Shown here piece by piece: positions 55,995 to 61,628 of a DNA stretch of 61,628 bases. The notes below the pieces were generated by a model that was not told where the DNA came from, did no database searches, and worked only from the letters and a program-made list of their open reading frames with translations. The stretch lies in assembly GCA_001767435.1 (NCBI GenBank), contig MEKT01000194.1:1-61628 (forward strand), read 5' to 3'. The position numbers and the translations under genes were made by a program. The number at the start of each line of letters is the position of its first letter. The stretch's first letter is position 1. The stretch is from Acidobacteria bacterium RIFCSPLOWO2_02_FULL_65_29 (GTDB lineage: Bacteria > Acidobacteriota > Vicinamibacteria > Vicinamibacterales > CAVVIG01).

Positions 55995-57188
55995 ATGTTC
56001 ATCCATCGGGCGCTCACCGACGAGTTACTGAAGGCGGCCCGGTCGTTTGCCGCGGTGATTGTCACCGGACCACGCCGGTCCGGCAAAACCACCCTCCTGC
56101 GGCGCGTCTTTCCGAAGGCTTCTTACCACCTCCTCGAAGATCCCGACACCGTGGCCCGGCTGCGCGCCGATCCGCGCTCATTCTTGGAGGAGGTTCGGCT
56201 TCCGGTGATCCTCGACGAAATCCAGAACGTGCCGGAGATCCTCAACTACGTACGCGCCCGAATCGACCAGGCGCCGAGAAAGACGGGACAGTGGCTGCTG
56301 ACGGGCTCGCAGGAGGCGCCGTTGATGGAGGGCGTCACCGAATCCATGGCCGGTCGTGCCGCTGTCCTCCAACTCCTGCCCTTCTCATCGGTGGAACACC
56401 CGAAAGTCTCCGTCGTGCGAGGCGGCTTCCCGGAAGTGATCGCACGTCCGTCGGCCGCGTCGCTGTGGTTCCGGTCGTACATCCAAACGTATCTCGAGCG
56501 GGATGTGCGGGCGATCAGCGACATTCGCGATCTGGCGACGTTCCGCCGCTTTCTCTCGCTTGTCGCCAGTCGCTGCGGACAGATGCTGAACAAAACGGAC
56601 CTCGCGGCACCGCTCGGCGTGTCGGTCCCCACCATCTCGCAATGGCTGAGCATCCTCGAAACGACCGCACAGATCCTGCTGGTCCCGCCGTTCTACGAGA
56701 ACTTCGGCAAACGGCTCGTCAAATCGCCGAAACTGCACTTCGTCGACTCCGGGCTCGCGTGCCATCTGCTCAACATCAATTCCGAGCGCGAACTCAGCCG
56801 CTCGCCCTTTCTCGGGCCGCTCTTCGAAGGGTTCGTCGCGTCGGAGATCGTCAAACACCAGCTCAATCAGGGTCGCCGCAAGGAGGTCTACTACTTCAGA
56901 GATCATCAGGGACTCGAGATCGACTTGGTGGTCCCCACCAGCGATCGCGTGCTGACCCTCATTGAGGCCAAAGCCTCACGGACGGTCACGCCCGCGATGG
57001 CCGATCCGCTCGTACGCCTGAGACACGCCGTCAGTCGGTACGACGTGACGAGCCTCGTCGTGCACCGCGGCACCTCCGGCGACGCGGCGCTCGCCGCCGT
57101 CCGGCCAGGTGTCAAAGCCGTCCCCGTCGATCGGTTCCTTTCAGCCCTGGCCACGCCTGTGCGGCGTCGAGCGCACCGCGCGCGTTGA
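55995..57188 (+). CDS. AAA-type ATPase with DUF4143 nuclease-like domain
   Basis: A 397-residue protein: Walker A GPRRSGKTTLLRRVF (from residue 25), Walker B LPVILDEIQNVPEIL, sensor LLTGSQEAPLMEG, a central winged-helix (LGVSVPTISQWLSIL), then DUF4143 with FLGPLFEGFVASEIVKH and the PD-D/EXK-like GLEIDLVVPTSDR...LIEAKAS. Members of this family are widespread in prokaryotes with no settled function; defence or toxin-related roles are proposed. It is flanked by Fic and HipA remnants. Confidence 0.9.
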   Translation: MFIHRALTDELLKAARSFAAVIVTGPRRSGKTTLLRRVFPKASYHLLEDPDTVARLRADPRSFLEEVRLPVILDEIQNVPEILNYVRARIDQAPRKTGQWLLTGSQEAPLMEGVTESMAGRAAVLQLLPFSSVEHPKVSVVRGGFPEVIARPSAASLWFRSYIQTYLERDVRAISDIRDLATFRRFLSLVASRCGQMLNKTDLAAPLGVSVPTISQWLSILETTAQILLVPPFYENFGKRLVKSPKLHFVDSGLACHLLNINSERELSRSPFLGPLFEGFVASEIVKHQLNQGRRKEVYYFRDHQGLEIDLVVPTSDRVLTLIEAKASRTVTPAMADPLVRLRHAVSRYDVTSLVVHRGTSGDAALAAVRPGVKAVPVDRFLSALATPVRRRAHRAR

Positions 57189-59273: not shown

Positions 59274-59438
59274 ATGGCTACGACAGCAACGACCACCGCG
59301 AACCTGACCGTCAAGATCACCATGGGTCAGGGTCCAAATCACCAAGAGCGGCGCCGGTCCAATGACCGGGGTCGTGAGCGTCTTGGAAAAAGCGAGACGT
59401 ACTCGTCAGATAGGCGCTGGGAAGACGAACGTGAGTGA
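59274..59438 (+). CDS. Short ORF cut by the group II intron remnant (54 aa)
   Basis: ATG 59274 has a strong GAGGAGGACAG site upstream. The product begins MATTATTTANLTVKITMGQG and then becomes highly charged (NHQERRRSNDRGRERLGK). The start region looks like a genuine gene; the tail probably runs into intron sequence, which seems to begin near 59430 (GTGAGTG). No family is recognised. Confidence 0.35.
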   Translation: MATTATTTANLTVKITMGQGPNHQERRRSNDRGRERLGKSETYSSDRRWEDERE

Positions 59439-59559
59439 ACCGTTGCTGACGTGTCGAAAATCAGTTGGACGCCATCGAAACCAGACTCGTGAAACTGGTC
59501 TGGGACTGAGCTCGGAGGACAACCTGCGGACTGTCCGAGCGGTGGCCGGCATGGAGACG

Positions 59560-60138
59560 GCGTGAGCCCAGTGCAGGCGCGTGTGCGGAACGTGGGAACC
59601 TTTCCCCCGGGCGGTGTTGGCCGCGATTCGTGGTCGGTTCGAGCAGTGCGGTCTGGCGCTTCATCCGACGAAGACGCGGATTGTCTACTGCAAGGACGAC
59701 ATCCGGCCCGGTCAGTAGGAACACGTCTCGTTCGACTTTCTGGGTTTCACCTTCCAACCTCGACGCGCGCAGAATCGCTGGGGGAAGAATTTCTCCGCCT
59801 TCCTGCCGGCGATGAGCACCAAGGCCGCCAAACACATTCGGCGCACCATCCGCGAATGGCGGCTGGCGTCTACCAAGAATCACTACGCCTTGGAGGACTT
59901 GCCTCGAATCGTGGACCCGGTGGTGCGTGGGTGGATGAACTACTACGGCCGGTACTACCGGACGCGGTGTGTCCTGACGCTCCAGCATCTCAACGAGGCG
60001 CTGGCCGCCTGGGTGCGACGGAAGCACAAGCGGTTTCGCTATCGGCGACGGGCGTCGCGGTACTGGCTGCGATGGGGGCCGGAAAAACGGGGGAGGGGAT
60101 GGGGTGGAGAGAGCCTGGAAAGCCTGGGCCTCACTTGA
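59560..60138 (+). pseudogene. Group II intron reverse transcriptase/maturase, C-terminal remnant
   Basis: A continuous frame reads RAVLAAIRGRFEQCGLALHP, TKTRIVYCKDD, then a TAG at 59716-59718, then HVSFDFLGFTFQPRRAQ, SAFLPAMSTKAAKHIRRTIR, DPVVRGWMNYYGRYYRT and ALAAWVRRKHKRFRYRRRAS. These are the RT thumb and maturase X-domain of bacterial group II intron proteins. Fingers and palm (including YADD) are missing and the TAG breaks the rest, so it is inactive. The flanking 59430-59570 and 60139-60175 may be residual intron RNA. Confidence 0.85.
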
Positions 60139-60195
60139 CCAAATACTTGACCAGTTGACCACGTACGGCTGTCATAAATCTCCGTAAATTGTTGG

Positions 60196-60279
60196 TGCGG
60201 AAGAGGGGATTCGAACCCCTACGGTATTGCTACCGCCAGCCCCTCAAGCTGGTGCGTCTGCCAGTTTCGCCACTTCCGC
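60196..60279 (-). tRNA. tRNA-Leu (anticodon GAG)
   Basis: The minus strand folds as an 84-nt class II tRNA. Acceptor GCGGAAG (from 60279) pairs with CTTCCGC before discriminator A. The D-arm region is TGGCGAAACTGGCAGACGCA. Anticodon stem CCAGC/GCTGG encloses loop TTGAGGG (anticodon GAG). A long variable arm and T-arm GGGGTTCGAATCCCC follow. CCA is encoded (60193-60195). It borders the intron remnant and fragment zone, consistent with use as an integration hotspot. Confidence 0.96.
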
Positions 60280-60380
60280 GTTCGCAGGGTGATTGGACTG
60301 TTTACTTGGGCGACGTGCCGTCCGTGCCGGTGGTGACTTGACAACACTTGACAACAGGCCGTTACCCGAAGCTCACGGCC

Positions 60381-60386
60381 AGTATA
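60381..60386 (-). promoter_or_regulatory. Possible -10 of the tRNA-Leu promoter
   Basis: The minus strand carries TATACT (60386-60381) about 100 bp upstream of the tRNA. No clear -35 is seen. The 210-bp gap 60286-60495 otherwise holds only two direct copies of CTTGACAACA. Confidence 0.3.
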
Positions 60387-60495
60387 GAACAACGCGTCTA
60401 CTTTCGCAGGGTTGGTCCCAGAACACGGGCGACAGCCCGGCACCATCGCCTGCACCGCGACCCGCCTCAGAGGAGGCGATTCGCATCGTGGAAAC

Positions 60496-61293
60496 CTACG
60501 CGAGGACCCTGAGCTCCGCCTTCCTGGCTCGGAAGTTGATGCCAACCGTACCGAACTCTGCCGCACTCGACTGGTGGGGCGCCCCAGCAAACACGTCCGC
60601 GCGCCATGTGATGGCGAAGTCCGTGAACCCGGCCTCCCCGACCAGCGCGTCAAGCTCTGCTTCCAGCAGAGCACCGGCGATTCAACCCGTCCACAGATCA
60701 ATCTTCTGCTTCGCCGCAGCGGGCACCTCCTTCTGCACGAGGATGTCCGCGATCTGGAGGCAGCCGCCCGGCCTCAGCACGCGCGCCATTTCGCGAAGGG
60801 CGGTTCGCTTGTCCGGCATCAAGTTGAGGACGCCGTTAGAGATGACCACGTCGGCCCAGCCGTCCTGCACGGGCAGTGCTTCGCCGTAACCTTCGCGAAA
60901 CTCCACGTTGGTGAGCCCGGCTTCGGCGGCGGCGGTGCGGGCCTTCTCGAGCATGGAGGGTGTCATGTCCACGCCCACTACCTGGCCACCGGGCCCCACC
61001 ATGCGTGCCGCAATGAGACTGTCGATACCAGCGCCGGCCCCAACGTCCACCACCCGCTTGCCGGGCTGCAACGGACTCAGAGAAAACGGATTGCCGGTGC
61101 CGGCAAACGATTCGATGGACGCCTCGGGCACTCCCTCCAGCCACTCGTCCGCGTAGCCGAGGAGCGCAGCCAAGGGGCGTCCGGTGTGAAAGTGAAATCC
61201 ACGGTGCGGGTCGCGCGCCACGACGTCGTACTCGTCACGGATGGCGCTGCGCAGCACGTCACGATCGAGCTGTGGGGGCGTGAAGGTCGACAT
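60496..61293 (-). CDS. SAM-dependent methyltransferase (ArsM-like), candidate selenoprotein with in-frame TGA
   Basis: ATG 61293 begins a class I methyltransferase: VVDVGAGAGIDSLIAARMVG (motif I), VVGVDMTPSMLEKAR, WADVVISNGVLNLMPDK, LREMARVLRPGG. After KQKIDLWTG comes TGA (60684-60682). The frame then continues IAGALLEAELDALVGEAGFT, ITWRADVFAGAPHQSSAAEF and TVGINFRARKAEL to TAG 60498-60496. In related ArsM-like methyltransferases the interrupted position is a conserved Cys (WT-x-C-IAGA). A SECIS-like hairpin follows the TGA, so full length would be 265 residues with selenocysteine. The alternative is a simple nonsense mutation giving a 203-residue protein. Confidence 0.72.
60654..60672 (-). 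promoter_or_regulatory. SECIS-like stem-loop downstream of the in-frame TGA
   Basis: On the minus strand GCTCTGC (60672-60666), loop TGGAA (60665-60661), GCAGAGC (60660-60654) form a perfect 7-bp stem. The stem starts 9 nt and the loop 16 nt after the TGA, and a G is the second loop base. These match the known bacterial SECIS layout, in which SelB binds a hairpin just 3' of UGA with G in the first two apical-loop positions. Confidence 0.6.
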
Positions 61294-61341
61294 GGTATCC
61301 AATCTTACACTGGCTTGTGGCGCGGCAGAGCGGCCCTGGTG

Positions 61342-61628
61342 CTAGAACCAGTGATGCAGCCACCACTGCTCGAACGCGACCTTGCCCCAGTGCCACAGAC
61401 GCCCGGGCCGACGCATCCGGACCTGCGGATCCGGCTCGGCGTAAAAGCGGCCGGTGGCGAAACCGGCCTTACCGTCGCCGAGCTCGATCCAGCAGGAGCC
61501 GTTCCCATCGAACGACGCTCGAGGCTGATGCCCACGGACCTCGGACGCGATCTGTGCAGCGACCACCTTGGCCTCGGCGTGGGCGAAGACGCCTGCCTTC
61601 GGGAGCATCTTGCCGTTGGGCAGCCGGA
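61342..61628 (-). CDS. Sulfide:quinone oxidoreductase-like FAD/NAD flavoprotein, 3' part only
   Basis: The frame enters from the right edge of the window (no start in view) and ends at TAG 61342. Visible residues are LPNGKMLPKAGVFAHAEAKV, VAAQIASEVRG, the SCWIELGDGKAGFATGRFYA block and the C-terminal RLWHWGKVAFEQWWLHHWF. This is the C-terminal end of SQR/FCSD-like or NDH-2-like flavoproteins, where aromatic C-terminal helices dock on the membrane. It lies 48 bp upstream of the methyltransferase ATG, likely in one operon. Confidence 0.75.
   Translation of the reverse strand, partial: RLPNGKMLPKAGVFAHAEAKVVAAQIASEVRGHQPRASFDGNGSCWIELGDGKAGFATGRFYAEPDPQVRMRRPGRLWHWGKVAFEQWWLHHWF

What the first reader, a model, noticed from the sequence alone, without database searches (positions are those of the whole stretch)
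60496..61293. Candidate selenoprotein: ArsM-like methyltransferase with UGA at a conserved cysteine
Seen: an otherwise intact methyltransferase frame is interrupted by one TGA (60684-60682), and coding similarity resumes immediately (IAGALLEAELDALVGEAGF) for 62 more codons to a TAG. Known: ArsM-like and related methyltransferases carry Cys at this place, a residue that binds arsenic or selenium species. Seen: a perfect 7-bp hairpin with UGGAA loop starts 9 nt after the TGA, its loop 16 nt away, within the roughly 16-37 nt range described for bacterial SECIS. Inference: Sec-containing methyltransferase, mis-annotated as truncated. The short downstream fragment would be lost in standard gene calling.
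Basis: partly seen in the sequence, partly recalled or inferred. Interest (0 to 1): 0.9.

Follow-up and report, generated by a model that had tools for sequence, protein, structure and literature searches.

The report
Selenocysteine methyltransferase related to ArsM
The apparent stop codon inside this bacterial methyltransferase gene is almost certainly read as selenocysteine: the same codon and RNA hairpin recur in relatives from many phyla, but the enzyme has lost the other cysteines that arsenic methylation normally needs, so its real substrate is open.

Summary
The window gene (61293-60496, minus strand) has one in-frame TGA (60684-60682) at the place of Cys224 in the arsenite methyltransferase CmArsM. 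Of 58 homologous loci read, 32 (the window's own included) have the TGA there, from several phyla. Protein similarity runs through it. One close homologue has TGC instead. A 7-8 bp hairpin 9 nt downstream keeps its register in the TGA loci, with compensatory changes, and is not kept at 20 Cys homologues. The genome carries selB, selD (itself with an in-frame TGA), selA (cut by a contig end), and a formate dehydrogenase fragment with TGA. selC was not found in this 97%-complete draft; 15 of 18 genomes with the TGA form have it.

Refinement: the Sec clade lacks the other arsenic-binding cysteines of ArsM (Cys72 column 0 of 33 rows with a letter, Cys174 column 0 of 34; canonical ArsMs 22 of 22 at both) and has a nearly invariant His pair near the N terminus. 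It is a stand-alone, lone-Sec member of a known kind (ArsM-type selenoproteins are in print); 'arsenite' is unproven as substrate. A close relative carries a decayed copy.

The parts
60496..61293 (-). Complete selenoprotein gene: ATG 61293 to TAG 60498-60496, 265 residues with Sec204; ArsM-like SAM methyltransferase
   Evidence: Translation with TGA as U; NCBIfam and Pfam hits; AlphaFold2 model, mean pLDDT 94.1, top four solved structures are ArsM
60682..60684 (-). In-frame TGA read as selenocysteine 204 (position of CmArsM Cys224)
   Evidence: TGA in 32 of 58 homologous loci read, own included; aligned to Cys of 5eg5 and 5evj
60654..60672 (-). Bacterial SECIS-type hairpin GCUCUGC-UGGAA-GCAGAGC, 9 nt after the UGA, loop 16 nt after
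   Evidence: Coordinates; covariation on 32 loci (30 distinct); synonymous null and Cys control
60499..60681 (-). 61 codons after the TGA, C-terminal part of the methyltransferase domain
   Evidence: Identity to ten close TGA relatives 66-76% after the TGA against 58-73% before it
61183..61197 (-). FHFHT segment with His34 and His36, nearly invariant in the Sec clade (candidate metal/substrate ligands, inferred)
   Evidence: H34 in 31 of 32 rows with a letter, H36 in 27 of 32; of 22 canonical ArsMs 16 have a gap there and 6 another residue
60193..60279 (-). tRNA-Leu(gag), next feature downstream; not part of the mechanism
   Evidence: ARAGORN, Rfam

Best explanation
A stand-alone selenoprotein of the ArsM-like SAM-dependent methyltransferase family. 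Shown from sequence: a UGA and a downstream hairpin of the bacterial SECIS kind, conserved across phyla, stand exactly where ArsM enzymes have the substrate-binding Cys224. Inferred: SelB with Sec-tRNA inserts Sec204, giving a 265-residue enzyme; without selenium a 203-residue product lacking the catalytic residue would be made. Also inferred: the selenolate, possibly with His34/His36, holds a soft metalloid or other electron-rich substrate next to SAM while the methyl group is transferred. Trivalent arsenic stays the default guess, but the Cys174 and Cys72 partners of Cys224 are gone, so the substrate is unknown.
For: In-frame TGA at the same column in 32 of 58 loci read, own included, among them records named Actinobacteria, Acidobacteria, Gemmatimonadetes, Myxococcota, SAR324, Thermomicrobiaceae and Betaproteobacteria. 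Cys there in all 22 canonical ArsMs aligned and in L059, 71% identical to the window protein and beside a TGA form in the tree (support 99/61), where the hairpin has only 5 of 7 pairs. Hairpin: 97.1% of cells paired against at most 50.4% in slid versions; covariation score reached by 0 of 500 shuffles; 4 of 8 pairs with changes on both sides (20 of 500 shuffles reach 4). Own genome: selB 362 bits, selA 462 bits, truncated by a contig end, selD 365 bits with one TGA in AGUAAKLG, formate dehydrogenase fragment with RIUHGP. Among 100 genomes (own included) 18 of 18 with the TGA form have selA or selC, and 0 of 17 lacking both have it (tallied). In L063 the gene lies just downstream of selB. Fold: ArsM 4fr0 Z 27.0, 6cx6 Z 26.6.
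Against: No tRNA-Sec gene was found: the only hit of the Rfam model over its cut-off (48.9 bits) is tRNA-Ser(tga) (150 of 777 first-look candidates were scored); a pattern search gave 41 matches, judged by eye, 11 of their loci without any tRNA by ARAGORN; BLAST with a relative's tRNA-Sec gave nothing under E 0.46. The energy-based hairpin test is only moderate: 12 of 32 TGA loci at 10 or fewer of 1000 synonymous draws, median z -1.97, window itself 63 of 1000. The nearest relative (88% DNA identity, L071) is decayed, so the gene is dispensable in that lineage. No peptide, 75Se or activity data.
Confidence: 0.94

Rival explanations
1. Pseudogene or sequencing error: the TGA is a chance nonsense mutation in a dying methyltransferase gene.
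For: The nearest relative L071 is indeed decayed: two one-base indels, a stop at Trp146, changes at residues otherwise invariant in the Sec clade, a mismatched hairpin arm.
Against: The TGA is shared by 32 loci with a covarying hairpin. The window frame is otherwise intact; of 35 amino-acid differences from L071, 25 lie on the L071 side, 6 on the window side, 4 undecided. Identity to ten close TGA relatives continues after the TGA.
Confidence: 0.02
2. UGA recoded as another amino acid (Trp or Cys by a changed genetic code) rather than Sec.
For: The frame would be equally open.
Against: The residue is Cys in all 22 canonical relatives aligned, not Trp. Sec machinery is present and the hairpin lies at the bSECIS distance. 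The two other in-frame TGAs I read in this genome stand in SelD and formate dehydrogenase at what I recall as their Sec sites.
Confidence: 0.02
3. It is an ordinary arsenite methyltransferase in function, the Sec and the His pair replacing the lost cysteines, much as in the single-Cys ArsM of Thermus thermophilus.
For: The four nearest folds are ArsM. TtArsM works with one Cys and, as proposed there, two His (passages of PMC8649762). The review files a UxxG selenoprotein as arsenite methyltransferase (passages of PMC13188914).
Against: The Cys174 and Cys72 positions are lost in the whole Sec clade; in CmArsM Cys174 and Cys224 are reported as needed for both methylation steps and Cys72 for the first (passage of PMC6950371). 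Six Sec proteins score 202 to 240 bits, below the curated ArsM cut-off of 263, against 347-361 for three canonical ArsMs. No conserved neighbour was apparent in the 20 loci listed, but only 8 neighbouring ORFs from 7 of them were searched for families.
Confidence: 0.45

Closest known systems
ArsM-type arsenite methyltransferase selenoprotein (NF008823, UxxG motif, WP_011987699.1 in PMC13188914, which cites Fomenko et al. 2007)
   Same: Homologous methyltransferase; Sec followed by xxG (UIAG here), one Sec.
   Different: The window protein scores 223.2 bits, below the NF008823 cut-off of 263. I could not read the sequence of WP_011987699.1 or the 2007 paper, so whether it shares the loss of Cys72/Cys174 is unknown.
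NF041537 ArsM_AhpD_UU, NF041536 ArsM_DUF2284_UU, NF047649 MTase_UXPK_star (attributed in PMC13188914 to its reference 64, Haft and Tolstoy 2025)
   Same: Among the four best matches of the window protein, covering the methyltransferase part: 241.5, 215.1 and 218.8 bits; UxxG motif.
   Different: No fused second domain and one Sec only; far below the cut-offs 510, 575 and 460.
Canonical ArsM / CmArsM (PDB 4fr0, 6cx6, 5eg5)
   Same: Same fold: Z 27.0, 26.6 and 20.9; other methyltransferases such as AtmM follow from Z 21.4, so the fold alone does not show function.
   Different: Cys72, Cys174 and Cys224 become Thr, Gly and Sec; an extra His pair; shorter C terminus.
Thermus thermophilus TtArsM
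   Same: Single chalcogen residue, with His proposed as replacement ligands.
   Different: Cys not Sec; the paper calls it evolutionarily distant from other ArsMs (passages only); I did not align it.

Membership tests
Bacterial selenoprotein (SelB/SECIS decoding) | In-frame UGA aligned with conserved Cys in homologues, and TGA-bearing homologues elsewhere | tested here: met
Bacterial selenoprotein (SelB/SECIS decoding) | bSECIS: stem 4-16 bp, loop 3-9 nt, G in the first two loop positions, 16-37 nt from UGA (model as given in a passage of PMC13188914; its energy condition was cut off and not tested) | tested here: met
   7 bp stem, UGGAA loop with G second, 16 nt; covariation
Bacterial selenoprotein (SelB/SECIS decoding) | selA, selB, selD in the genome | tested here: met
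   all three over the curated cut-offs, selA truncated by a contig end
Bacterial selenoprotein (SelB/SECIS decoding) | selC (tRNA-Sec) in the genome | tested here: inconclusive
   Not found in a 97.12%-complete draft; in 74 of 99 relatives a hit of 56.7-77.2 bits stands apart, and 8 of 8 such loci checked are tRNA-SeC(tca)
Arsenite methyltransferase (ArsM) | At least 3 of the 4 Cys at CmArsM 44, 72, 174, 224 (criterion of PMC5552862, passage) | tested here: not met
   Cys72 is Thr66, Cys174 is Gly154, Cys224 is Sec204; Cys44 was not located in the alignment, but the only Cys of the window protein is residue 178
Arsenite methyltransferase (ArsM) | Curated model NF008823 at or over its cut-off | tested here: not met
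   223.2 against 263 bits
Arsenite methyltransferase (ArsM) | ArsM fold | tested here: met
   4fr0 Z 27.0, rmsd 2.3, 218 aligned
Arsenite methyltransferase (ArsM) | Methylates As(III) | not testable with these tools
   Needs an enzyme assay
NF041536 / NF041537 / NF047649 fusion selenoproteins | Second domain with further Sec, full score | tested here: not met
   Gene ends at residue 265 with one Sec; scores below the cut-offs

The most novel reading that the evidence does not exclude
The Sec clade is not an arsenite methyltransferase at all, but a family spanning many phyla in which a single selenolate, perhaps with a His pair, serves as the substrate ligand of a SAM methyltransferase for a different soft element or thiol/selenol substrate.
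Probability: 0.4. Interest if true: 0.7.

Novelty: new member of a known kind. Interest (0 to 1): 0.5.

Why it matters
Standard gene calling would cut this protein before its catalytic residue and leave a 61-codon tail unannotated. The window protein falls under the cut-off of every NCBIfam model in the list shown (25 of 55 matches), so the stand-alone clade is probably under-annotated. The loss of two other arsenic-binding cysteines together with a Sec and a His pair makes it a natural test of what selenium contributes in a methyltransferase, as opposed to a redox enzyme.

Tried and rejected
Rejected: nonsense mutation/pseudogene and changed code (see rivals). The 405-aa antisense ORF 60412-61626 (+) was set aside as a mechanical high-GC frame because the homology found lies on the minus strand; I did not search it against families.

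Led nowhere: viral contigs hold no stretch matching the patterns used. A conserved gene neighbourhood was not apparent: one search listed ORFs of 20 loci, searched 9 ORFs (8 neighbours from 7 loci, and the ORF upstream in the window, which gave no Pfam match). Among those searched, L023 and L058 have an MFS transporter upstream (L058 also a metallo-beta-lactamase-fold protein), L059 a DsrE protein, L062 an OsmC protein, L051 and L052 FAD proteins, L063 selB. A search for the AhpD-fusion model in 396 genomes of the phylum gave none over its cut-off (E limit 1e-70). The sigma-70 promoter scan found none in 60150-61628. selC by family, pattern and BLAST: not found.

Rows and limits: the genome-contig scan used six short peptide patterns and one search gave loci for its best matches only, so the 58 loci are a sample. 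Four weak hits (L078-L081) were not read; L071 and L077 were left out of the protein alignment A2, L042 also out of the tree. L034 and L035 are long branches that meet, so their place is unsure; L034, counted in the Sec clade although it has Cys, falls to 26% identity after the site. In one search the tRNA-Sec threshold of 56 bits and the inclusion of four selA fragments under the cut-off were my choices. My first idea that the Sec equals CmArsM Cys174 was wrong: counting along the 5eg5 alignment puts it at Cys224.

Papers: PMC13188914 passages and part 2 of its reference section; PMC9312934, PMC1242214, PMC5552862, PMC6950371, PMC8649762 passages; other titles from search listings only. Haft and Tolstoy 2025 is not held; Fomenko 2007 seen only as a reference. 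Recalled, from no call: that 5eg5 and 4fr0 are CmArsM, the usual Sec sites of SelD and formate dehydrogenase.

Full report
What is there. The minus-strand gene 61293-60496 reads 203 codons, a TGA at 60684-60682, and 61 more codons to a TAG. Read with TGA as Sec it is a 265-residue SAM methyltransferase (Methyltransf_31, E 6.9e-33), nearest by NCBIfam to the methyltransferase part of known ArsM-type selenoproteins and to ArsM, but under the cut-off of each of the 25 models shown of 55. The AlphaFold2 model (mean pLDDT 94.1) has four ArsM structures as its top rows (4fr0, Z 27.0, to 4kw7, Z 21.6); other methyltransferases follow from Z 21.4.

The TGA is a conserved codon. A search of 100 genomes, the window's own and 99 relatives, and of public genome contigs gave 58 loci that I translated. 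Four of these six align a Cys there (L039, L067, L073, L076), L071 is decayed, and L077 ends before the site. Identity to ten close TGA relatives is 58-73% before and 66-76% after the TGA. L059 (a Chloroflexi record) has TGC, is 71% identical to the window protein and sits beside the TGA form L050 (99/61) in a tree built without that column. The Sec-type group (31 TGA, 2 Cys rows) is separated from 22 canonical ArsMs with support 100/100, and the tree needs three Sec/Cys changes.

The hairpin is a conserved RNA. In fixed register it has 7 of 7 pairs in 29 and 6 of 7 in 3 of 32 TGA loci, and at most 5 of 7 in the 20 Cys loci. On 30 distinct rows 97.1% of cells pair, against at most 50.4% when slid. 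Four of eight pairs change on both sides (20 of 500 shuffles reach four); the covariation score is reached by 0 of 500 shuffles. Loci L063 and L066 encode GGLPCEGW where the window has GALLEAEL, yet keep a 7-bp hairpin in the same place. Weaker tests: folding energy against synonymous recodings is only moderate (median z -1.97, 12 of 32 at 10 or fewer of 1000; Cys loci median 0.0, 2 of 20 at 5 or fewer of 500), a perfect legal hairpin follows 30 of 1527 TGAs of the window, and dinucleotide shuffles give z -1.18. The case rests on conservation, not on energy.

The genome can decode it. selB, selA cut by the end of contig C60 and selD lie together on C60. SelD carries its own TGA (AGUAAKLG) and a formate dehydrogenase fragment on C179 reads RIUHGP; that these are the usual Sec places is recalled. 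selC was not found: the best hit of the tRNA-Sec model is tRNA-Ser(tga) at 48.9 bits, while in 74 of the 99 relatives a hit of 56.7-77.2 bits stands apart, and 8 of 8 such loci checked are tRNA-SeC(tca). Two other drafts with the TGA form (G037, G047) also lack it. I infer an assembly gap; the draft is 97.12% complete in 239 contigs. Over 100 genomes, own included, 18 of 18 with the TGA form have selA or selC, 15 of 18 have selC, and none of 17 genomes lacking both has the TGA form (Fisher p 0.037; the match list was cut at its weak end).

What differs from ArsM. In the alignment to 5eg5 (C72A mutant) window Thr66, Gly154 and Sec204 stand at positions 72, 174 and 224. In the Sec clade (34 rows: 32 TGA rows, L034 and L059) the Cys72 column is V19, T12, I2, gap 1 and the Cys174 column Gly 34 of 34; the 22 other ArsMs have Cys 22 of 22 at both. 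His34 is kept in 31 of 32 rows with a letter and His36 in 27 of 32. The published criterion of three of four Cys (passage of PMC5552862) is not met. A single-Cys ArsM with two proposed His ligands is known from Thermus (passages of PMC8649762), so arsenite methylation is not excluded. Mechanism (inferred): selenolate 204, perhaps with the His pair, binds the substrate beside SAM.

A natural control. L071, 88% identical in DNA over 695 positions, has two one-base indels, a stop at Trp146 and a mismatched hairpin arm; 25 of 35 amino-acid differences are on its side, 6 on the window's, 4 undecided. So the window copy has been held intact while its neighbour's decays.

What is known. PMC13188914 (passages) lists arsenite methyltransferase (NF008823, UxxG, citing Fomenko 2007) just above its heading 'Predicted with high confidence'; I did not see the heading of the upper part. 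It also lists three fusion families with UxxG. The window gene is therefore a new member of a known kind, in a stand-alone lone-Sec form. I saw no description of this form in the listings, but the key 2025 paper is not held.

Noticed in passing
window 59284-60138 (+): Remains of a group II intron: an Rfam D1-D4 match at 59284-59410 and a maturase-specific domain ORF at 59812-60138 (PF08388), just beside tRNA-Leu(gag) 60193-60279.
   Followed up: partly
L071:1992-2682: Closest relative of the gene (Acidobacteria groundwater MAG) is decayed, with a mismatched hairpin arm but the TGA still present.
   Followed up: yes
L130:418-1185 (G000:C179): Formate dehydrogenase alpha fragment in the window's own genome with an in-frame TGA in RIUHGP.
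   Followed up: partly
L018 (G000:C60:7132-8055): selD of this genome has an in-frame TGA near its N terminus (AGUAAKLG), so SelD is probably a selenoprotein too.
   Followed up: partly
L063:1-1827 and 1983-2762: In a betaproteobacterial MAG the Sec methyltransferase gene lies directly downstream of selB.
   Followed up: no
L059:1-906: The Cys form carries a C-terminal extension that looks like a TusA/SirA-type domain by eye (recalled, not named by a search) and is followed by a DsrE-family gene.
   Followed up: no
window 55995-57188 (+): AAA_14/DUF4143 ATPase gene.
   Followed up: no
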